A DNA stretch of 64,000 nucleotides from positions 18,952,997-19,016,996 of the forward strand of contig CP099843.1 of assembly GCA_030062745.1 (NCBI GenBank), in the 5' to 3' direction. Source of the DNA: Capitulum mitella (Eukaryota; Arthropoda; Thecostraca; Pollicipedomorpha; Pollicipedidae). This document shows, piece by piece, positions 1 through 58,688 of this stretch. Numbering within the stretch: the stretch's first letter is position 1; each line of letters opens with the position of its first letter. Under the pieces are notes generated by a model. That model did no database searches. It had not been told where the DNA came from and saw only the letters and a list, made by a program, of their open reading frames with translations. A program made the position numbers and the translations under genes.

Positions 1-554
1 TGCATTTACGCCACGACGTCCCCCTCGGAAAAGCTCTTCTGCGACCAGCGCCGCGACAGGTATATACAGCAGCAGCAGAAGAAGTAACCACAAACTTCGC
101 AAAGCAGTCCCCGCATGCACCACCACGAGATAGTTTCGCATGAGAGCAGTAAACAGGCACCCCAGAAAACCACGGCAGCAAAAAGCTGTGAAAAGCTCTG
201 TTGCAGCTCGCAAACAAGTTGTAAACCACTATCAAAACACGGGCTAGCGGTTGGCCCCGTAAAATAGTCATCATTGTACAGACGCCCCAGCCGAGATGAG
301 GTGAAAAAGACATGACAGAGCAGACCTCACGCGCATTTGTCACAATCAAAGCCCACACTATCCCAACCTGCAGATATTCTCAAGTACCAAACCCAAACTG
401 TAACGCCTTGGGATTCATAACCAATATCATTTCGGACTTGCCAGGACGACCCCAAGCGACGGCGCTCAATGGCCAGCAGAAGCGGAAACCTGCAGCTTCG
501 ACAGGCACTCAGTAGGTGGCTCTTAGGTCGGCACGCTCAGCGTATCACTGGCAT
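1..554. repeat. Duplicated segment, copy 1 (beside assembly gap)
   Basis: This segment is nearly identical to 5044-5597. The few differences I see are single-base indels near the start and near position 155, plus one substitution near 410. It stops directly at the N run, so the match may continue inside the gap. No recognisable gene lies in it; the short open frames on both strands match no family I know. It could be a true segmental duplication or an allelic contig end placed next to its partner. Confidence 0.9.
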
Positions 555-5043: not shown

Positions 5044-5597
5044 TGCATTTACGCCACGACGTCCCCTCGGAAAAGCTCTTCTGCGACCAGCGCCGCGACA
5101 GGTATATACAGCAGCAGCAGAAGAAGTAACCACAAACTTCGCAAAGCAGTCCCCGCATGCACCACCACGAGATAGTTTCGCATGAGAGCAGTAAACGAGG
5201 CACCCCAGAAAACCACGGCAGCAAAAAGCTGTGAAAAGCTCTGTTGCAGCTCGCAAACAAGTTGTAAACCACTATCAAAACACGGGCTAGCGGTTGGCCC
5301 CGTAAAATAGTCATCATTGTACAGACGCCCCAGCCGAGATGAGGTGAAAAAGACATGACAGAGCAGACCTCACGCGCATTTGTCACAATCAAAGCCCACA
5401 CTATCCCAACCTGCAGATATTCTCAAGTACCAAACCCAAACTGTAACGCCTCGGGATTCATAACCAATATCATTTCGGACTTGCCAGGACGACCCCAAGC
5501 GACGGCGCTCAATGGCCAGCAGAAGCGGAAACCTGCAGCTTCGACAGGCACTCAGTAGGTGGCTCTTAGGTCGGCACGCTCAGCGTATCACTGGCAT
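5044..5597. repeat. Duplicated segment, copy 2
   Basis: Partner of 1-554, offset by 5043 bases and almost identical. Here the sequence continues without a gap to 5774 and then into a 30-base A run, so copy 2 shows what copy 1 may continue into beyond the N run. Confidence 0.9.
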
Positions 5598-10592: not shown

Positions 10593-10835
10593 TTAAGAAA
10601 AAAAACATGACGCCCGACTGAAACAATGCCAGACACCCAGTGCGAACGACGGCGCGGCCCGGGCCCGGCGTCCAGGGTAGTCAGACAGCAGTCTGGTGAC
10701 CGGCAGCCGTCCTCCGGCTCGGCCGTCGGCCGCGCCTACCTCCGGGTCTCCAACGATCCGATGCAGCAGGGTTTCGCCCAGCGTGCTGGGATCCTCGCCA
10801 CGAGACCGGTACAGCTCCATTTCGACAATCATCTC
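10593..10835 (-). CDS. Anoctamin exon 18 (last)
   Basis: The acceptor TTGTTCGCAG precedes [18 protein letters not shown], which fits the family's charged stretch after the last helix. The frame stays open to TAA at 10593 (80 codons). After GDPE a GAG/GTAGGC donor is possible, and the remaining 48 residues look unlike the family, so the true end may lie in another exon. Confidence 0.6.
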   Translation of the reverse strand, partial: EMIVEMELYRSRGEDPSTLGETLLHRIVGDPEVGAADGRAGGRLPVTRLLSDYPGRRARAAPSFALGVWHCFSRASCFFS

Positions 10836-13800
10836 CTGCGAACAACACGCACGGCACCGGCTCAGTCCATCGAACGCCTGTAAGACCCGCACCGTGCCCA
10901 AAGCCACTGATCGAGTCCTCAGGTCCTCAGCGAGTCTCTGAGACGCCTGCAGGCCTACCGGTACCGGCCGCCCGGTCTGAATCAGCGCCATCCGCCGCCA
11001 GGGGTCCACCTGAACCTGATAGTTCTCGGCCGCCCAGTCTGAATCAGCGCCATCCGCCGCCAGGGGCCCACCTGAACCAGATAGTTCTCGGCCGCCCGGT
11101 CTGAATCAGCGCCATCCGCCGCCAGGGGCCCACCTGAACCAGATAGTTCTCGGCCGCCCGGTCTGAATCAGCGCCATCCGCCGCCAGGGGCCCACTTGAA
11201 CCAGATAGTTTTCGGCCGCCCGGTCTGAATCCGCGCCATCCGCCGCCAGGGGCCCACCTGAACCAGATAGTTCTCCTGCTGAATACGCTCCTTCAGCTTC
11301 CTCGGTATGTCCGGCGTGATCCAAAAAATCAGCTGCATAATCACGTACACGACGTTCTGGAACAAATCACAAAGGCAATGCAATGGCTCCAAACGATAAC
11401 GTGCGCTAACAATAAGTTCTACCATCGCCAAAGCCATCATTTTCATATCTCAACATTTCCGCATTGTACTGCACACGACCGTTCGTAATTACTACCTGTT
11501 ATGCCATTACAGATGTATTATCAAACACCAAGAACAGCTCGAAAAGAAAAAAGCAGTGCAGGGCAGGAATGCCTTTGTTAATGATCTGAATGCCTCGTCA
11601 ACGATGGTATCAACCATACGGCCAGCTGACCTGGAAAATCAGCACGAAGAGCAGCCGGGCAGCCAGCACGTGATAGTACAGCGGCGTCGGCTCGTACCGG
11701 TCGGGTCCGTCCGGTCCGTTACGATAGTCAATATACCTGTCAAAAGAGCCGAGCGGGCCGCTCACGCACAACTACGACAAGCGGCACGGTGCCACTTACT
11801 AGCAGGCGGCGTCTGATCCGCGGATGACCTGATTTGACCAGCGCGTGACTTGATGACGACCGGGCGCCTTGATCTGACCTGCAGATGACCTGATAGGACC
11901 ATCGGGCGACCTGATATGACCTGCAGGTGAACTGCTACGACCCGCATGTGACCTAATCTAACCTGTGGGTGACCTAATCTGACCTATGGTTGGCCTGATT
12001 TGACCAGCGGGTGACCTGATCTGGCCTGAAGGTGAGCTGATCTGACCCAGTATGACCTCCGAATGGCCTAATTTAACCTGCGCGTGACCTAATCTGGTCT
12101 GTAGATAACCTGATCTGACCTGCGGATGGCCTGACCCGACCTGCGGGTAACCTGACCTGACCTGCGTGTGGCCTGGTCTGACCTGCAGGTGTCGATGACG
12201 CCAGAGCTGTTTTGCCCGGGCCGGTACCGGGAGCTGAAGTCGGCCACTCGGAACACGGCCAGGCTGTGGTTCATGTAGCCGTGCAGAGAGCCGTCTTCGC
12301 TGACCGTCAGCTGGTACACCAGCCGCGGGATGAAGTTGGACGTGAAGCCGATGATACACGCCTGGCGCGAACCGGCAAGATCGTCAGCCAGCAGATAACA
12401 CGATGACAGCTACGAATTTACCCGCCACAAAGCCAGACAGCGACGCCGCTGACGTCACGATGGCACGAAAACGCTTCGCCGCTCTGCTAAAGGAAGCTTC
12501 GTCCAGACAGCGCACTTCGTCGCACAGCTCCTGAGACAGTCAGCTGGCGCTACAGTAAGCGCAGGCCGTCTTCCGGGCACCTGGCGCGGAAACGCGACGC
12601 ACCACGGCTCACAAACAACGCTTCCGGAAATTCAGCTCCCGCGCCAATTACCGGTCCGGCAGACTCCGTTACCGACCGGCCAGCGAGACGGTTTCGGCCA
12701 TCCGCCGGCCGTCTGCCGCAGAGGCCAGCCGGACCGCCGGCCGCCGGCCTCCCCGTCCGATTCACTCACGTTGCTGAGCACGGCCAGGCGTCCGATCGTG
12801 TTCAGGATGCGGTACCAGATGCCGATGTCCCGCACCCGCTGCCCCACCGGGCGCCGGTAGAAGGTGAGCAGCTTGCGCGCGTCCAACCGCATCTCCAGCG
12901 TGTTGTTCATGATGGCGAAGAGCGGAGCCAGAGGGAACGACGCCACAAAGATCGTGACGAAGCCGAACTGGATCACTGCGCAACACGGCGGCAGAGCACT
13001 GAATCAGTCAGGAGTCACCGGGAGCGATACGCAACTGTTGCCAGACAAATACCGGAGCGATAACAACTGAGGAGCCAACATCCATCGCACTACCTTCCCA
13101 TCATTTCAGTAATTCATTCGGGCACAATTCTCACGATTAGCGGCTTGCGTCATGTGATAACTATTTGCCCTAAGACCTGCACTACCCAATCAAAGTACAT
13201 CCTGGAGCCCATCTTCGCTGACTTACCCATCTCCAGGTATTCCCAAAAGAGGCTCTGTGTGCCCCAGCTGAGCAAGGTGAAGTCCGCAGCCCAGCGGGGC
13301 AGGTCGCGTTTTTCTTCCTTGTTGTCCGTCAACAGCTTTCCCAGGTCACTGAGCCAGGTGAACAGCTTCCTGTCGAGCACGTAGCGCAACGTTAACGCGT
13401 CGACTCTCGGGACAGCGTAAGTCCGCAGCAGCGCACTCACGCTATACTGTGAAAGTGCCACACTTTCCATTACCCATTACCGGTACCATCCAACACTGCA
13501 ACTTTTTTTCCACCATAAACACATCATCCTACGAACCGCATAAGCAGCCGGAGAAAGGTTCGGCGGTCTGTTTTCAGATTATAACGCCCAAAACAACACT
13601 GCTTCTGCGTCCACACAAGCATCGCCGTGAGTGACATCGGGCACGTGCAAACGGCTGATCACGAACACAGCATTAATCTACGATAACGTCGAAATGCGAT
13701 TCAAGACTGGCCGACACTCAGCACTGCCAATCCAACACAGCACCGCTCCGAGGCCTCGCACCGGCCATTGACCCCGAGGCGGCGGAGCGACTGGTGGTGG

Positions 13801-16800
13801 CCGCGCGTCCGTGCGGCGCCGCGTACTCACGGTAACACCATCTCCCAGATGGTGAGCAGCGCCTGTTTGCCGACCATGATGATGGCCAGCTGCATGGTGA
13901 GCTCCCAGAGACAGCCGCCCGGACCGCACTGGACACACAGCAGGACGGTCAGTGACACAATACAGCGGGACATGGTGAGCTCCCAGAGACAGCCGCCCGG
14001 ACCGCACCGGACAAACAACAGGACGGTCAGTGACAAAGCATAGCGGAAGGTCCGCCTGCCAGCAGCCATCTCCCACTACCACTCAGACATTCATCTCGCC
14101 TGCCATATTTGTATCAACTCGTTTTTGAACGTGCAATCACTTTCAAAAACGAGTTGAGAAAACTTTCAAAAACGTGAGATGTTTTCCGTGGGAGGTTGGA
14201 GTGCGGGCACTTTGTCAACGACGGACAACTCGCCTCTCCCCCCCCCCCTCCCCGACGGTCAGGGGTTGATCTGAAATGTATGTAAAAATGCGTGGCTTTT
14301 GGAGACTCATGGCGCTTTCAAATCGCATTCCCTCTTCCCAGCTTTTGGTAAACAAGACCCGCTGTTCATGAATCATTCATAACGGGTGAGGGCAACAGTA
14401 ATGAACGCAAGCTAAGCCACGACTGCCATGTCTGCAGAAAATAAAGAAACTTTCCGACAGTAAAAACAGGCCAAGGCTATGTCAATCATAAACGCGTGTT
14501 TGGGCTGCAGAAGCTGATATCTTCCTGCCGGCTCAAGCCCACCTCTTCCTGTCTGTAGCCCAGGATTCGATTGTACTCTCCCGGGTAGCCGTGGAAGCGG
14601 CCCTTGAAGAACGCGATGTAGAAGATGGAGGCATAGTAGTTGATGAACTGGAGCAGGTAGATCTTCAGCGTCAGGCTGTCATCGTACTCCGACTGAGTTC
14701 TCGGAAGCTCTAGATCCGTCAAGAACCGAGCAATCCTATTGTATACCTGGAAGCACAGGCGTCGTTACACGATGCTCTCTTATTTGATATCAAGATTACG
14801 ACAATCCAACGTCTTCATGGCTTAGTTTAGCAAGGACGATACGCACATGCCAACACGACTCCATGGGAAATTTAGATGCAGCATGTTACGTGCTATCCCA
14901 AAAAGCGGCAGAAATACGACACACATTCTCAATTTGTGTACTGGTGCAGTGGGTCAATCATTCTGGCCTACCTCCAACAGTCAATACAATACTGAACATC
15001 GTCGAGTCCCGCGAAAACACTAAGAAAAATTGCGTAACGATATCGTTTTATCCGCTAGCACAGACTGCATGTCAACAGCAGCATCGAAGCGATGATCAGT
15101 CATAGCAGCCGGAAAATAACTGAGGCAGTACCTGGTTCAGTAGAAGCACGATCACCAAGTTGATGGTGGCCGCCGTAGCGTTGGTGAAGATGAGCGCGAA
15201 ACTGTTGACGTAATTGTTTTTCCAATAGGCCAGGGACGCCAGAACCGACAGACGGTACAGCACCACGCCCACTATGATAGCAATCGCCACCATAATCTGC
15301 CAAAAACACAAAACAAACGCGATAGAAACACGCACGTATTGCAGGTGTACACAATACTCAGCCATTAGTGAAAGAAGCGGACAACAGGTAGATGAACTAA
15401 TTCAGCAATGACTACGGTGATTCACCACCTGCCACTGACTCAGGGCAGCGGGGGATATCCACTGGCCAGGAGCAGGATCACGGACACAATGCTCTCTGCG
15501 GACCACCAATAGGATCAGGGACACACCGCACTCTGCGTACCAGCAACAGGATCAGGGACACACCGCACTCTGCGGACCAGCAGCAGGATCGCGGACACAC
15601 CGCACTCCACTGACCAGCAGCAGGATGACGGACACGCTGACCAGCATCCTCGGCAGCCGCATCTTCCAGAAGCTGACGCGCGGCTCCAGCTGTTTGGTGA
15701 CGATGTTCACCTGCCGACGTCCGGTCACGTCATGTTTGCCCGGAGCGTGCCGCGCCCAATGGCGTCACGACTACGGCCGTCAGCGTCACGCTGAAGTCAA
15801 TACTCAGACACGTAACAGCAGGGACCAAAATGAGCTCCTATGGAAAGAGCGCAGATTCCTGAGGTGAAGAATGCGAGGCTGCATTCCACCCTGGTCTTAT
15901 CCGGAATGTCTCAGTGAAATCCCGGGAAACAAAACAAACCTGGAATTCAGCTCACGGCTCGGGAACGAAACGATGTTAAATTTACACTTCAGGCGGGAAG
16001 AATGCAGCATTAAACATTCACGATTACTTAACACAGAATGTGTTCAACGTTCTGACTGACAGTTTCTCGCTCTCCATATTGAGTTTTTTTCCAGTTTGGA
16101 AAAACGTCCGCATTCTGGTCAAATGCCTGATGATCAACAGAAAAACTCCTGTGCGAAAAACGTTTGGTTTGCGGAGGTACTCGCCTCCTGGCGGAGGTCC
16201 TTCAGCTTGGAGAGGTACTCGGGCCGTGGGTGTTCCTCCTTCAGGTCGAACCCTGTCAGGTCCCAGCGGTGCGTGATCTCGGCAGAGTAGCGCTTCCACA
16301 GCTCCAGAAACAGCGCCGCTGTGACCCAGCCGGCAACACGAAGTGTGTTAGTCAACTGCTGATGTGGAAATTGCATCTGCTTGAAAATTTTCATCACAGA
16401 AGCTTTTGGAATACCGATTCCAACCACAGCATTCAGTGCTGTTTTCATTGTGGCATTGCTGTTTAAAATGTAATACAAGCACACGGATCTGTATTACGCA
16501 TTACAACTCATACTAATGGATTCAGACATTCCGACGTGACATGCAAGCAGAGGACGTGCGAAATAGCAACGAAATAGCAGATAGTCGTTTTTTTTATTCG
16601 TATCCAGGATCCTGCATTCCCTTTGGGCACGGAAATTTTGGCCACATCTCCATCATTGTGCTGAGCAGATTTCGGTCCCTGCTGGTGGCAGTCCGTCTCG
16701 CCGTCATCACAGCGCAACATGGTCTCAACATGCAAAGGTTTAGTCACTCAGACTTGGAAGCAAAGCATGTGCTTTCTCGTCTGGACTCCTCGATCGTCTC

Positions 16801-19800
16801 TACCTACACGTGACGTCACTTTTGAATTTACCCTGAAGCGGTGTTTTTTTCGAGTCTTCACTTCAAGATGACAAAACATGCAAGATGACCACGCTGACAA
16901 ACAACTGTAGTCTATTCGGGATGAAGACAACGCCATCTTTTTAAATCGATTCATGACCCAATCTTGGCCAGAACTCCGTTCCGGCACGTCCGAAAAATAT
17001 CTAGGATTAACAAATTATATTACTTCAGTTTCCTAAGCAACACTACTGGCGTGGTGTTTTTCCTGATAACATGAAGGACGCAGTTCCGACTCCAACTTTT
17101 TATGTTGTAAAAGGAATGACGTAATACGAATTACTAATAGCTGTTCTTGAAGCAAGGCAATGAAGGCCGAAGCAAACGGTTTTTGGCACGGAAACGATAG
17201 CAAGAGCTTGGGCAGACAGACAGCAGACGCCCACCGGAAATCAACAGCATGCTCTTTTTGAATAGGATGAACAGGACAATGACCAAGAACATCTAAAATC
17301 GTCTGTTAAGCTGCGTCAGCTCACCCCAAAAGGACATGAAGACGGCGAACACCAGCGTTGACGGGTTGTCCACCAAGTAAGTGACACGTGCATGCGTGCA
17401 CGTGTCGTTGAGCCGGTAAAAGTCGCAGAACACGTCGCAGATCGGGCACATCATGACCTCCGTGTCGTGGCAGATGTCCTCACTGGGGCAGTCAGTTAAT
17501 TCATGCTGGTGACAGCTGAACTGTACCAATCATATTGTGAGTTTAACCGGCACTGCACTGTCGACAACGACGCGTCAGACGGCTGCTTTTGGCAGCTGTG
17601 TATCTGAAGCCTGCGCACCACTGGGCATTGTCTCCTGCAGCATCTCCGAATGCTTGCACTTGCTGAATGACCTGCATGCATCTTCTTTTTTAACACATCT
17701 ACTCGATGTCGGCGACTGAGAAAGTTGAAAAAAAGAACAAAGCTGTTCTTTTCCTGTCAAACAAGTTTTCGTTTTACAAACACTCCACAATTCCTTGGGG
17801 CGTCAGTAACACAAGATAATGATATTTCCACTGCTACCTTGTCAGGGGTGACACAATGACGGCAACAACAGCTAATGGTGGTTATATGGGGTCACATCAG
17901 GTCAAATAAAGCCAGATCTCATGCACTTTATATCGCGTCACTGGCTTGAGGTGGGCATACTAAACCAAGGTATTCTGATACTAAACCATCTGAAGTGGCA
18001 GGGTGTTACGCTACGTTAGACCATGGCAGCCCACCTGAGAAACGCAGACAAACATATTACATTCATAAAAATATCGTTCCGTTTTTGCTCCGCATGCAAC
18101 AATTTGCAAACTGTATCAAAGCTGTGTCCATAAAACGGGCAGCAAGCCAAAAAAAAAACCCGCACAAAACAAAACAAAGAAGGACAAAAAACCGCTACTG
18201 ACAGTGTCACGTTTTTATTTCCTTTTGTTATTTAGTTAGGTTAAAAAATGGTGGCACAGCTCCGCGAGTTACAAATGCGAAATCAGCTATCAACCGTGCC
18301 AAGGCCTGCAGAAACGTCTTTTCTGGTGAATTATGAGTGACACATGTTTTGGCTAATGTCGAGGGGAACGACACAGGCTGACCATACGTCTTTCCGTATC
18401 TTTGTGCACCGCCTTCGCGGTCAAAAGCGCTTTGTTTTGATGCACAACGGCAATTATAGCAGCAATAAGAATAATGATAAGAATAATGATAAGAATGATA
18501 ATAAGAACCGCTCTTTCTTTTCCAACAAGCACATCAACAATGCCTTGTTGCCCACCACTTACTGTTCATCATGGAGAATAAACGGCAAAATAAATACGAA
18601 AAGACCGAATAACATTCTATAGTGTTTCTTTCCAGGGGTGCTTTCCTGGGAAGGGGGATAACTGCTTATACATAGTATCCGATATAATTAACGCCTTTGT
18701 CATCACGTATTCTAATTAGTCAAGAATAAGGCGACAAAAGGCGACCCAAGTGCACACACATTTCTTTCAAGAACATCGTGAAACTCAAAGAATATCTAAA
18801 ATGACTCCAACTCTGAAATGCTGACAACACCACACCAGGATGGTATACTATTGAGCTTCCTTCTAAGGCCACCACACCACAATCACACTTCCAGAATTTT
18901 GAGAGTTCCGCGTCTATATAAGAAAAAACTGCGGAGCCTAAATGTTGACAAAGCAAGGTATAATGAAACTGCTCCTTTAACAGCCGCATGGCTCTGTGAG
19001 GAAAGGTTGTACAGAATAAGCATTTAAAGGTGCGTTTCAGACATACCAGTCAGCACCAATCACCACGTTTGTCATGGCCCGCTCCAGCCGCGATGTCGAA
19101 ATCCGATGTATTTTTTACGAATCCTAATCACCGATTCGTTTGTGGCTGTTACTGTGCATGTTAGTCATAAAACAATAATACAGACTAGTGCGCGTCGTAC
19201 TCGGAAACATGAACCGAAGTCTAAACTGTGAACCAACCTGGGCACATCGTCATACAGCGTGACGATGCCGTAGACGAGGCAGATGATTCCCACGATGGCC
19301 GGCGGGACCAGGGCGTACGTGTAGAAGCCCAGCCAGGCGAAGTACATGGCGATCTTGACGCCGAAGTACTCCTGGACGTAGTCGAGCGGCTGGTGTCGGT
19401 AGAATTTCCGCAGGCAGGCCCACTCGGACCGCAGCCGCGAGCGCAGGTTGCCCGGCCGGCGGTGGTCGCCCTGCACGGACGGAGAGCGGGGTCGGTTGGT
19501 TGGTTACTGGGGCTTAGGGGCGCACCGACTGCAGGGTCATTCGGCGCCCAGGAGAGCGGGGTCACGGCAGCGTCACGGCCGCTCACCGTCACAGGGCACT
19601 CACTGCCTTCTCTGGCACACCCGGACTCCTGTTGTTCACCTCTCTCACAGGACGCACAGGAACCACAACTCGAGCGCACTGCACAAAAATCCGAGCCCGA
19701 TCAACGCCACATTACGCAATCGGCGCATAAGGCGCCTTACCTCGTGGGGCGCATAGCTGGCCAAGTACGTGCCGTCGGCCAGCAGTTTGTCAATGCCAAA

Positions 19801-22408
19801 ATCCATGAGTGACTCGTGTTCCGGGTCGTGTTTGACAAACCACTTCCGCTGCAGAATGAAGGCCACCACACGCGCCCGCACTGCCGGGGTGAAGAACCCC
19901 GGCGACATCTCAAACCTGGCGGCCCATCATCGCAGGATTAGCAGACCGCTGGTGATCGGTCTCGTCGACAAGAACACATAAAAGAAGCCACCCGTCCAGT
20001 ATCTGATAAAAAGCAACGGTTGGTGACTGGACGCGTCTGTCTGTAAAACCGGCTGCAGAAGCTCATTTTGGAGCACGAAGTCTGCCAGGCCAACTGATCA
20101 ATACTGTAAAAAAGTGGCATCTCAATTATGGAGCTCGTCAAACACGAACCATTGCTTATCTGACAATTCAGGGTACAGGATGTACGTCAAAAAATCTTTC
20201 AAATATTTCCTTATGAAATGGTAAGACCACATGAAGTCCCTTTCGTAAAAGGAAAAAATGTCCGGATTTCATTTAAGCCCTCGTATCATGACGTGATTTC
20301 GGACAACACCGTGAAGAAGCAAACAGCCGAACCACACTTACGTGCACGCCTGGTAGGAATCAAACTGCGCACGAGCCAAAGCCGAGTGCGAAACGTCAGG
20401 ATGGTCTGGCTGCACGACACGGATCGGAACAGGGTCACAAGTTGTTGACCCGAGGTCGCTGAGAGGAACAGGTCGGATCTGGCGGTGGGGATCCGAACTA
20501 TCGAGGCAGCCAGACCGACATGGACAGCACGATCACATACAGGGGACAGACAGACAATATAAATCAGCAACGCAACGGCGGACATGCCCTCCGTGGACTG
20601 TCCGATATTCTTAAACGGAATACCTCGCATTTCATGTCACTGCAAAAAATGTAAATAGGCATTGCAACACATAAAAAATGTGAAATACGACAAATATTGT
20701 ACGGATAAGCTTGACAAATACGGATGAGCTTTTTCAGGGCTTATATGAAGCGCGGCGCTGAACGTCGGTACGATGTTTTTTTTTTGTTGCGGCATGCTTC
20801 GCTTTAATTCCGTTCCGACGCATAAATGATTTAACAGCATGCCACCATGGGCCATCGATAACCTAACTGCTCGGCACGCTCGAAAACCCTGATAACAAAA
20901 GACTGTCCTTCAAAAAGAATGGAGCGCGAACAAAGAACATCCAAAATTGGGCAAAACAGCGCATATCCGACATACATGTTAAGTACCTGCATAATGAGCG
21001 TCACCAACGCTGCCAAAACGCTATATCGCATACCTCACCTCAGGAAGACCTTGTCACAGTACGTCCCACTCTTACGCAAAATTCACTTTCGCGTCAACAC
21101 AAAATGGACAAATGCAATGCTGCAAACTCACAGATACTCCCGGTCCCTGCTGTACACGCCGGTGAGGCTCTGGTTTTTGGGCGGGAACTTCTTGGGGTTG
21201 ACGCCAAACAGGCTGTTGTCCACGCTGGTGACCAGGTCGGTGATCTCCCGGATCACCGGCACCTTCTTGATGAAGTCCTCCTGCGCACTCAGCCCCGTCG
21301 GCTGCCAGCACAAGCACACACCCGGTCATAGGGTGGGCGCCAGCAGACATGAGACAGGGGGTCGGCCGCGTGCCGACACTTTCAATCCAGAAACGGACCA
21401 TCTCAACAGGAGACGCAACAGAAGTACCAGCACAAAAACGGTACACTCAACGGGCTGGCAATCGCTCGTGAAGCTGTGCGTTTCAACACCAATAGCCCTG
21501 AAGGAGACAATATCATTGGAACACGAAGCAGCGTCTTCTTTCCGAATCGTAACGAGAGGTCACTTACCCAAAAGCGTTCATTAAAATATCAGCTCCATTG
21601 TCAAGGGAACCTAGACAGTCTCCCGATACACCCGTGACACTACAGAAGAAGCAGATTTTTTGCCAAAGTTATGGAGTTAATCTACGGCAATGTTCAATAT
21701 CTTATCTTATCAAACCATCGCCAAGTCGTCGCCGGGAATAAAATGAAACAGTTTATATCTAGGGGGCGATACCTCAGATAATCATGCACTTCACCAAAGG
21801 TATGACTCACGAGTTTCATTGGCATACGAATCTTGAGAATCTCGGCATAGCGCCTGAGCACCTCCCACGGAGTGTGAATCTTCACAAACGTAACGGGACT
21901 GTTCTCGTCTATCTTGTCTTCCTCCAGCTCGAGACCCTCCTTCCTCTGGAGCAGATGAATCATGGCTTCACTTCCTTCACAGTTATGTGATAATTTGACA
22001 TCACCAGCACAGGAAGAATGCGTCGTGTCCGATTAAAATTCTGCACAACTGAATCGATTTTTGCCGCCCCTTGGCTGACGTCAAAAACCGTGGCGCTAGA
22101 GTAACCTGGTCAATGGTAAGTGCTTCGCTTCAGCGTACTGAAGTGTTCCACTCTGATTCCCAGGGAAGGCATCATGGATTCACGGTTGAGTGGTCAAGAC
22201 ACATACAAAAATATGTGTATATATATATAATATATAATATGTAATACGTAGCTTGGTGGCTGCAATAAAATTATGTAAACCAAATTATCTGAGACGCAGC
22301 ATCTACTTCTATTCAAATGGTTCGCAACACAATCATTCAATATGTCTACGAGCCTAATGCAATATCATTTATTTTACACAAACTGCATTACGCATCGCCA
22401 CCATGCAA

Positions 22409-36979: not shown

Positions 36980-37380
36980 TTTTTGGGCAGAAGTTCGTAG
37001 GCCTAAAGTTCGTGGGGTAATAGTTCGTCGGGTATTATTTCGTAAGGACAAAAGTTTGTTGGCAAAAGTTCGTCTTGGGCAAAAGTTCGTATAGCGAATG
37101 TCCGTATGGACAAAGTTCGTCCAGAACAAAAGCTCGTCTGGGAAAAAAGTTCGTCTAAGACAAAACTTCGTCTCACTTAAGTTCGTATAGGACGAAAGTC
37201 CGTCTAGGACAAAAGTTCGTCCAATAAGTTCCGTAAAGGACATAAGTTTGTCTACAAGAGTTCTTCGAGGGCAAAAATTCGTTTCGTAGAAATTCGTCCC
37301 GGACAAAAGTTCGTCTGAGAAAAAAGTTCGTCTATGGAAAAAGTTCGTCCAGGGAAAAGTCTCTTCCATGTCATATGGTT
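36980..37380 (+). repeat. GTTCGTC-type array, left arm
   Basis: About 20 degenerate units of roughly 15 to 20 bases, consensus near GGACAAAAGTTCGTCTA. All frames stay partly open because the unit is low in stops, giving a spurious 176-codon frame on the minus strand. Confidence 0.88.
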
Positions 37381-37740
37381 CTCGCATGGAAGTTCTTACG
37401 GGCCTGCGTGAGTAGTCCTTAAGGACCATATATATAGTCCGGAAAAACTGCGAACTATCGGACGACAGCTAGTGCAATCACACTAGTGAATGAGGCTTTG
37501 ATTCCCAATGGCCGGATCCCGCAATGGCAATAAGAAATGGCAAAAGTTCGTCTATGGAAAAAGTTCGTCCAGGGAAAAGTCTCCTCCATGTCATATGGTT
37601 CTCGCATACAAGTTCTTAAGGGCCTGCGTGTGTAGTTCTTAAGGACCGTATGTATAGTCCGGAAAAACTGCGAACTATCGGACGACAGCTATTGCAATCA
37701 CACCAGTGAATGAGGCTCTGATTCCCCATGGCCAGATCCC
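37331..37740 (+). repeat. 220-bp tandem duplication
   Basis: TCTATGGAAAAAGTTCGTCC begins at 37331 and again at 37551; the two copies stay alike through GGAAAAACTGCGAACTATCG and GAATGAGGCT to about 37740. Confidence 0.92.
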
Positions 37741-38008
37741 GAATTGATTCCATTCCATGAGTCATAAGCAAGTGGGTAACCGGACGAAAATTTGTAAGTC
37801 AAAAGTTTGCACGTGAAAAAGGTTCTTAGCCAAAGGCTCGTATGCATAAGATTCGTGAGGAAAAAGCTTCGTAGCCAAAAGTTCGTAAACAAAGGTCCTT
37901 ATCGGAAAAGGTTCGTTCCAGGTTTGCGCCAAAGGCGAGGTATACGATACTACAGACCGTAGGCCGATAAAGGGTGCGATCGGACTTGATCTGGTCTAAC
38001 AAAGTGGT

Positions 38009-38033
38009 TAGGTTACGTTAGGTTAGGCTAGAT
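38009..38033 (+). repeat. Short TTAGG-like run
   Basis: GGTTAGGTTACGTTAGGTTA then GGCTAG: four TTAGG-like units, one imperfect. TTAGG is the telomere unit of many arthropods, but a run this short proves little. Confidence 0.5.
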
Positions 38034-38099
38034 TACTATTTTAGGTCTGTTTCTTTTCCGATAAGAGCCTTAAATTTACGCACCTTTGGTTACCAACCG

Positions 38100-38530
38100 T
38101 TTTTCGTCACGAACCTTTCCCCTTACGAAACTTTTCCATACAAACTGTATGCAGTATGAGCCTTTTCCATTAGCGAGACGAACTTGTCTTTGACTCGTTT
38201 TTGCCTTTGTGGCTCTTGACAAGCTCCTGCATGACAGACCTCTGTCCTACACAAACTTCTGCCCTATATGAGCTTTTGCCTTACACAAACTCCTGTCCCA
38301 GACGAACTTGTCCGAGAAGAACTTTTGTCCCAGACGAAACCTGTCCCACATGAACTTCTGCAAAACGAACTTTTGTCCTCGACGAACTTTTACTCTCAAC
38401 AACTTTTCGCCCTGGACGAATTTTTCCACGACGAGCTTCCGCACGACGAACTTTTGTCCCACAAACTTTAGTCCGACAAACTTTTGTCCGACCAACTCCT
38501 GCGATACGAACTTTTGCTCTAAAATCGACA
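38100..38530 (-). repeat. GTTCGTC-type array, right arm (inverted)
   Basis: The same unit as 36980-37380 but in reverse orientation, consensus near GACGAACTTTTGTCC, about 20 units, more irregular between 38100 and 38240. Confidence 0.88.
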
Positions 38531-51612: not shown

Positions 51613-51840
51613 GCGGCTGGCTGGCTGGCTGGCTGGCTGGCTGGTTGGCTGGGTGGTTGGGTGGCTGGCCGGCTCGCCGGCTAGTCGTCTGCCTGGGTGG
51701 CTGACTGGTTGTTTCGCTGGCTGGCTGGCTGGCTGGTTGGGTGCTGGCCGGCTGGCCGGCTAGTCGGCTGGCTGGGTGGCTGACAGGCTGGTTGGCTGGC
51801 TGGTTGGCTGGCTGGCTGGCTGATAGACTGGCTGGCTGGC
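51613..51840. repeat. (GGCT)n-based minisatellite
   Basis: Mostly TGGC/TGGT tetramers with CCGGCT interruptions. On the minus strand it keeps a frame open that reads Q-P-A-S/Q-P-A-N repeats, preceded by a hydrophobic stretch (YVLLGVCWFVAVWPVVSA). That frame has no ATG near its start, so a gene is not called, but it could be an exon of the neighbouring minus-strand gene. Confidence 0.85.
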
Positions 51841-57632: not shown

Positions 57633-58527
57633 CCATATAAGGCCTCTGAACACCAAATAACAGACAGACATAGTGATTTGCCCTCGGCACGTGTGGACGT
57701 CTAGTGCAATACCGCGTGCCCCTGGCCGCCAGTCTCTCGCAAACGTTCTGGTTAAGTGCCTTTGATTCAGTGCCGTTGGGGCAATATTTTTTGCCCTTTT
57801 CATTTATGCCTGATTTTGCCAGATTTCTGCCACTCTGCTACTGCTGGTCTTTCTCCCCCGTCCTCGTCTGTTTTCCAGGGACGTGCCATCTTTCCCACGG
57901 GAACTCCACCGGGAGACTGAGCGCACGCACATTCAGTTCCTCGGCTAGCTGGTACGGCGGCATTCGAGCGCCTAACCACTCGAACTGCCCAGGAGCGGAT
58001 CGTCCAAGCACACTTCTTGACGATTCTGGGACACCAGCTGGTCGGGTAATGGTCACCAAATGACCTCTCCTGCCTGCGGCTCGCTGCGGGTGCAGGCAGG
58101 TGCATGTCACCTGACCCACAGCCGTGCGCTGTCGCCCGAGGACAGGTCGCGGAACTTCCGGCAGCCGTTTTGACTGAACGGCGATGATGTTTTTCACGCA
58201 GAACTTTTGCCGTCAGTTTGTATGCACCGTGCGTACAATATGGAGGTTAATTGTTGAGCGGATACGGCCTCAGAGACTACGGGGAAAACGACCACCAGTC
58301 TGGGCATCAGGACGACGCCCGCCTGTGACACGACCGTCGACCTGCGGCGGACGGTGGCTGCCGCCGCTCGGTAGCGGCGCCGGCCCGGATGTCGCATGGC
58401 CGAGAGGAGCGTGGGCGCCAGCGGGGCGCCCAGAGGACCGGTTTGCCGGCGTGCCGCGGTGACAGATGCGCCGGCCGGCCAGTCGGTCGTCCTGCGCCGC
58501 GCCGGGCCGAGCTCTCGCCTCCTCTCC
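57633..58527. other. Region upstream of the sulfatase-like gene
   Basis: G+C rises strongly from about 58270. The coding frame stays open upstream to an ATG at 58396, but the added residues are arginine-rich and unlike a sulfatase N-terminus. No TATA box is evident. Confidence 0.45.
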
Positions 58528-58688
58528 ATGGCTGACGTGGGCGTCCGGGCGGCGGCGGCGCTGCTGCTGCTGGCTGCGGCAGCGGCCGCCGACACCAACA
58601 TAGTGGTCCTGCTGGCCAACAACATCCGCACTGACGACCTGAGCTGCTACAATCCGAAGACGCCGGTGCGCACGCCCAACATCGACAG
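58528..58688 (+). CDS. Sulfatase-like exon 1
   Basis: ATG at 58528 (CTCCATGG) is chosen because it opens a signal peptide, MADVGVRAAAALLLLAAAAA, ending just before the mature-like DTNIVVLLANN. Donor GACAG/GTCAGT; the exon leaves AG, completed to Arg54 by exon 2. An in-frame ATG at 58396 is less likely. Confidence 0.85.

What the first reader, a model, noticed from the sequence alone, without database searches (positions are those of the whole stretch)
10965..15635. Splice-site-seeded tandem arrays in three introns of one gene
In the anoctamin gene the arrays after exon 9 (37 bp), exon 15 (21 bp) and exon 17 (62 bp) all begin inside the last coding bases of the exon and carry its 5' splice site into the intron many times over. 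Repeat units, lengths and sequences are unrelated, so the shared feature is the position. Either the exon-intron boundary is prone to duplication here (for example G-rich or R-loop-related slippage at CAG/GT), or multiple donors are tolerated or used. I do not know this pattern as a described phenomenon.
Basis: partly seen in the sequence, partly recalled or inferred. Interest (0 to 1): 0.8.

Follow-up and report, generated by a model that had tools for sequence, protein, structure and literature searches.

The report
Repeated splice junctions in anoctamin gene
Short DNA repeats in this animal gene begin inside the ends of exons and copy the splice site into the intron several times, a probably harmless kind of repeat already described in lancelets as 'mirages'.

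Summary
In a minus-strand anoctamin gene, arrays of 37, 21 and 62 bp begin 21, 4 and 18 bases before an exon's end and carry its donor into the intron. A paralogue lacks all four, with equal exon lengths, but has its own acceptor-spanning array. Genes with Calx-beta, Gaa1-like and psq exons show the same. Donors and acceptors are hit 5 and 6 times, so this is not a donor property. No G4 motif in 8 arrays. Repeated donors are not better conserved than the rest of their units (5 of 5 arrays, three of them with only 3 downstream units). Touching exceeds uniform placement: 11 of 43 arrays, expected 4.5-5.7 (P=0.0006-0.005); without window, paralogue and L010, 5 of 35, expected 1.8-2.4 (P=0.02-0.07). 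It is in print: amphioxus 'mirages' and a human IFI6 minisatellite with several used donors. Best reading: minisatellites born by tandem duplication across exon junctions, tolerated because the exon-side copy still splices.

The parts
15466..15635 (-). 37-bp array (x4.6) covering the last 21 nt of exon 15710-15615, its donor CTG|GTCAGT and part of the intron
13893..14046 (-). 78-bp duplication (x2) spanning the acceptor and the first 36 nt of exon 13928-13831; the upstream copy reads GTCCGG where the exon-side acceptor reads GTCCAG
13831..13928 (-). anoctamin exon with duplicated acceptor
11820..12186 (-). 21-bp array starting at the donor CAG|GTCAGA; units 2-4 keep GT and are in frame (each adds 7 aa); later units decay
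10965..11275 (-). 62-bp array (x5.0) covering the last 18 nt of exon 11356-11258 and its donor CAG|GTGGGC; GT kept in 5 of 5 units
10740..22032 (-). anoctamin gene, the part recognised here: 16 exon blocks shared with the paralogue on C4; further exons may exist

Best explanation
These are minisatellites of the 'mirage' type. A short tandem duplication spanned an exon-intron junction, so that exon end, splice site and adjacent intron were copied together. Further unequal exchange or slippage multiplied the unit inside the intron. The duplication is tolerated because the copy that adjoins the exon body keeps the original splice site; the other copies become intron and decay. Shown here: the arrays span junctions, at donors and at acceptors, in several genes of this genome. 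They are absent from the paralogue's four corresponding introns while exon lengths are equal. The repeated donors show no extra conservation. Inferred: the mutational steps, that the exon-side site is the one used, and neutrality.
For: The product spliced from exon-side sites aligns to Anoctamin-1 across the junctions. Exon lengths are equal in the paralogue, which lacks these four arrays but has its own 48-bp array over another exon's acceptor. The same in other genes: a 61-bp array within two bases of a donor in a gene with Calx-beta exons, a 43-bp array over a donor next to a Gaa1-like exon, a 66-bp array over the acceptor of a psq-domain exon. The genome is dense in minisatellites: 13 of 17 random 10-kb loci hold an array of period >=10 and score >=80. 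Donors and acceptors are hit 5 and 6 times. The donor window is no better conserved than much of the unit in 5 of 5 donor arrays, and the exon-side donor is best or within 0.1 of best in 5 of 5. Each distal donor of the 37- and 62-bp arrays would give a frameshift or a stop; the product of the 37-bp array's second donor is shifted but open over the stretch translated. Amphioxus RT-PCR is reported to suggest regular splicing despite such repeats (PMC3087553).
Against: No RNA data, so use of distal donors is open; donors 2 to 4 of the 21-bp array are in frame and score 3.2, 0.6 and 3.1 against 3.1 for the first. Touching is above neutral placement: 11 of 43 arrays, expected 5.7 (P=0.005) or 4.5 (P=0.0006); without window, paralogue and L010, 5 of 35, expected 2.4 (P=0.07) or 1.8 (P=0.02), and 8 of 70 with weaker arrays, expected 3.2 (P=0.01). 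Plain neutrality does not explain an excess. The conservation test is weak: three of the five arrays have only 3 downstream units, and the 21-bp array loses register after unit 7.
Confidence: 0.77

Rival explanations
1. Junction-targeted duplication: something about exon ends (replication/transcription conflict, chromatin, or microhomology between CAG|GT and intronic CAGGT) makes tandem duplications start there more often than elsewhere. It is an addition to the best explanation rather than its opposite.
For: An excess of about 2 to 2.8 times over uniform placement. The 61-bp array starts within two bases of a donor and the 21-bp array within four.
Against: In the independent set P is 0.02-0.07 depending on which period is allowed to overlap. 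Among the touching arrays the overlap into the exon varies up to 36 nt, so there is no fixed start. No G4 motif and no consistent GC skew. Donors and acceptors alike. Exons come from my own predictor.
Confidence: 0.3
2. Functional donor arrays: the repeated 5' splice sites are used or recruit U1 and so make alternative or safer splicing, as in human IFI6; the 21-bp array could add 7, 14 or 21 residues in frame.
For: 62- and 43-bp units keep GT in 5 of 5 copies. The 21-bp array stays open and in frame with donors 2-4. IFI6 precedent as cited in PMC4526556.
Against: Donor window not more conserved than much of the unit in 5 of 5 arrays. In the register used, GT is lost in unit 5 of the 37-bp array, in unit 5 and from unit 8 on of the 21-bp array, and in 11 of 16 units of the 61-bp array. 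Acceptors are repeated about as often.
Confidence: 0.12
3. Introns born from tandem duplication of AGGT-containing exon sequence (Rogers model).
For: Known mechanism; the repeated junctions are mostly AG|GT-like (PMC3443670, passages).
Against: The three introns sit at the same positions in the paralogue, which has no array there. By eye, the next exon's start is not a copy of the repeated exon end.
Confidence: 0.03
4. Assembly error that stacks copies at exon ends.
For: Not tested against reads; the authors say that one amphioxus mirage appears wrongly assembled in the draft (PMC3087553). Copies of the 62-bp array match at 96%.
Against: Copies differ by substitutions (84% matches in the 37-bp, 67-71% in the 21-bp rows), and the same pattern appears on several contigs.
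Confidence: 0.04

Closest known systems
'Mirages' of amphioxus (Adh3, globins BflGb6/BflGb9, troponin C; similar repeats in PGBD5)
   Same: [quoted passage not shown] units of 10-72 bp (Adh3) and 150-160 bp (globins); many units copy the splice signals (PMC3087553 and PMC3902484, passages).
   Different: Different genome (unnamed; 16 contigs, 477 Mb). Here four arrays lie in one gene and several more genes are involved. No RNA or haplotype data.
IFI6 (6-16) minisatellite with multiple splice donors (Turri et al. 1995)
   Same: Minisatellite that carries repeated splice donors.
   Different: There two downstream repeat units are used as donors (as cited in PMC4526556; the original is not held, and was not seen). 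Use is not shown here.
Intron gain by tandem genomic duplication (AGGT; PMC3443670, passages)
   Same: Tandem duplication of sequence carrying AG|GT.
   Different: Here the introns already exist at the same places in the paralogue; no intron was made.
Tandem-repeat changes of human genes in segmental duplications (PMC2812944, passages)
   Same: Minisatellites (on average 30-bp units repeated 4 times) that change exon-intron structure.
   Different: There exons or transcripts change; here exon lengths equal those of the paralogue.

Membership tests
Mirages (junction-spanning minisatellites) | Tandem units contain both exon-end and adjacent intron sequence | tested here: met
   exonic overlaps of 21, 18, 4 and 36 nt in the four window arrays
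Mirages (junction-spanning minisatellites) | Both 5' and 3' exon boundaries can be duplicated | tested here: met
   3 donors and 1 acceptor in the window gene; 5 donors and 6 acceptors among 11 touching arrays, one acceptor case (L010) doubtful
Mirages (junction-spanning minisatellites) | Unit length within the reported 10-160 bp | tested here: met
   21, 37, 62 and 78 bp
Mirages (junction-spanning minisatellites) | Regular splicing undisturbed | tested here: inconclusive
   Exon lengths and protein conserved; no RNA available
Mirages (junction-spanning minisatellites) | Copy number differs between haplotypes or somatically | not testable with these tools
   One assembly only
IFI6-type multiple-donor minisatellite | Downstream repeat donors are used in mRNA | not testable with these tools
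   No reads
IFI6-type multiple-donor minisatellite | Downstream repeat donors keep donor consensus | tested here: inconclusive
   Kept in the 62- and 43-bp arrays, partly lost in the 37-, 21- and 61-bp arrays
Intron gain by tandem duplication | Intron absent from relatives and bounded by copies of one exonic segment | tested here: not met
   Same intron positions in the one paralogue examined, without arrays; next exon starts are not copies, judged by eye
G4/R-loop-driven expansion | G4 motif or strong G skew at the junction | tested here: not met
   0 G4 motifs in 8 arrays; skew -0.15 to +0.46, only the 61-bp array strongly G-skewed

The most novel reading that the evidence does not exclude
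In this genome exon-intron junctions are preferred birthplaces of minisatellites (2 to 2.8 times the placement expectation), and where the unit is a multiple of three, as in the 21-bp anoctamin array, copy-number change gives an in-frame ladder of donors that lengthens the protein by 7 residues per unit.
Probability: 0.17. Interest if true: 0.65.

Novelty: new member of a known kind. Interest (0 to 1): 0.35.

Why it matters
Junction-spanning arrays show how far splice-site choice tolerates exact copies of a donor or acceptor next to the real one, and they are raw material for intron sliding and alternative exon ends. The papers found here under the name 'mirage' are about lancelets; finding such arrays in several genes of another, minisatellite-rich genome would make a genome-wide test with RNA reads straightforward.

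Tried and rejected
Intron gain by AGGT duplication: rejected, intron positions are shared with an array-free paralogue. G-rich/R-loop seeding: no G4 motif, mixed skew. Donor-specific mechanism: rejected, acceptors are hit about as often. Selection on repeated donors: no extra conservation of the donor window, though the test is weak for arrays with few copies. Plasmid search of the region: no match. Naming the organism: not achieved. Size and contig number resemble the published assembly of the barnacle Capitulum mitella (16 chromosomes; Hi-C total 482.98 Mb, largest 45.43 Mb; PMC8416341, passages), but the lengths held here (largest contig length seen 45.52 Mb; total 477.04 Mb) are not the same, so this stays a guess.

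Limits of the placement test: exons come from my own predictor, trained on the two anoctamin genes with a splice consensus written from general knowledge. It put one window exon end at the second donor copy (11196); I replaced the window's anoctamin predictions by curated ones. One touching case (L010, 7472-7547) lies inside a continuous open frame and is probably not in an intron; it is left out of the independent set. Flanks were chosen for loci with genes, after the 61-bp case and part of the 43-bp case had been seen, so the 'independent' set is independent of the window but not wholly blind. In one search the overlap allowed was the best-scoring TRF period, which for some arrays is a multiple of the basic unit (115 reported for the 21-bp array); one search repeats it with the smallest period. 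For that reason the rival on junction targeting was raised from 0.25 to 0.3, the novel case from 0.15 to 0.17, and the best explanation lowered from 0.80 to 0.77.

Full report
What is there. The window lies at C5:18952997-19016996 of an unnamed 477-Mb, 16-contig genome. A minus-strand anoctamin gene occupies about 22.0-10.7 kb. Sixteen exon blocks are shared with a paralogue within C4:12.37-12.40 Mb, and the spliced C-terminal part (637 aa) aligns to Anoctamin-1 over residues 8-612, E=3.4e-175. Read on the coding strand, the 37-, 62- and 21-bp arrays start 21, 18 and 4 nt before the exon end and repeat the donor into the intron; the 78-bp pair repeats an acceptor with the first 36 nt of its exon.

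Age and origin. The paralogue has the same intron positions and equal exon lengths (96 and 99 nt and, for the acceptor exon, 98 nt; 179 nt, where one search's automatic choice had been wrong). It has no TRF array (score >=40) in the four corresponding introns, but carries a 48-bp array over the acceptor of another exon, whose intron is array-free in the window gene. The arrays therefore most likely arose separately in each copy, in introns that already existed; loss from one copy is not excluded. Exon-end sequences are similar between the paralogues, so the exon is the likely source and the intronic copies are derived.

Is it special to this gene? No. In 354 kb (window, 30 kb around the paralogue, 17 random 10-kb loci and nine flanks) TRF gives 62 merged arrays of period >=10 and score >=80, 43 of them within 3 kb of one of 94 predicted or curated exons. 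Eleven of the 43 touch a junction (gap <=6 nt): four in the window, one in the paralogue, two in R13 (one of them a 61-bp array of 16 copies that begins within two bases of a donor), two in R10 (a 43-bp array over a donor, a 66-bp array over an acceptor), one in R15 (6 nt from an acceptor), and one doubtful in L010. Identity of these genes: Pfam supports a Calx-beta exon in R13, a Gaa1 exon next to the 43-bp case, the psq domain in the exon with the 66-bp case, and an ankyrin exon in R15, each above a curated cut-off; the Na_Ca_ex match in R13 (E=0.0015) is below its cut-off, and the exon beside the 61-bp array has no match. Of the exons with a Pfam match only the psq one is itself a touched exon; the touched exons beside Gaa1 and ankyrin were not searched. 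Donors 5, acceptors 6.

Against chance. The null slides each array uniformly between its flanking exons, allowing it to reach into an exon by up to one period. With the best-scoring period: 11 of 43 touching, expected 5.69, P=0.005; without the window (5 arrays), paralogue (1) and L010 (2): 5 of 35, expected 2.39, P=0.07. With the smallest period: expected 4.52, P=0.0006, and 1.80, P=0.024. With weaker arrays (score >=50): 8 of 70 in the independent set, expected 3.24, P=0.01; with allowed overlap held to 20 nt, P is below 0.003 in each setting tried. So a good part of the pattern is what dense minisatellites in short introns give once junction-spanning copies are tolerated, with an excess of about 2 to 2.8 times that this sample cannot settle.

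Do the copies do anything? Across five donor arrays the 9-base donor window is not specially conserved (44-97% of circular windows of the unit do as well or better), and the exon-side donor is the best or within 0.1 of the best in each. Three of these arrays have only 3 downstream units, and the score is my own consensus. GT is kept in 5 of 5 units of the 62- and 43-bp arrays and lost in part of the 37-, 21- and 61-bp arrays. Each distal donor of the 37- and 62-bp arrays would shift the frame or bring in a stop, but the 21-bp array offers in-frame donors (units 2-4) that would add 7, 14 or 21 residues. No RNA was available. G4 motifs: none in 8 arrays.

Comparison with the known. [quoted passage not shown] the PGBD5 paper (one passage) adds troponin C and PGBD5. 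The IFI6 case (as cited in PMC4526556) has downstream repeat units used as donors. The present arrays meet the mirage features that could be tested; splicing is inconclusive and length instability was not testable. My searches, seen as listings of the best 8-20 papers each, showed the name 'mirages' for such repeats only in lancelet papers; the human IFI6 and segmental-duplication cases are related reports from another group. The library holds open-licence papers alone. The genome may be a barnacle: size and contig number are like those in PMC8416341, and an exon that recalls bric-a-brac proteins lies beside the psq exon (recalled resemblance; Pfam gave no such match). This is not established.

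Verdict. A true pattern, already named in another animal group; a new member of a known kind, most likely neutral in effect.

Noticed in passing
window 1-554 and 5044-5597: 99.5% identical direct repeat whose first copy ends at a 500-base run of N (555-1054): a duplicated contig end, haplotype remnant or mobile element.
   Followed up: partly
window 37045-38497: Dense cluster of degenerate 14-17-bp repeats built on AAAAGTTCGTC, partly in opposite orientations.
   Followed up: no
window 51615-51840: Imperfect (GGCT)n array of about 57 copies in a long open frame.
   Followed up: no
window 58466-58688: Predicted exon with a signal-peptide-like start and a sulfatase-like beginning (recalled resemblance), plus strand.
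   Followed up: no
L020 6138-10000: A 30-bp array of about 129 copies filling at least 3.9 kb of a random locus.
   Followed up: no
L017 2226-3216 (R13 12226-13216): 61-bp array of 16 copies starting within two bases of the donor of a predicted exon; GT kept in 5 of 16 units (1, 2, 6, 10, 14), about every fourth, suggesting a higher-order repeat.
   Followed up: partly
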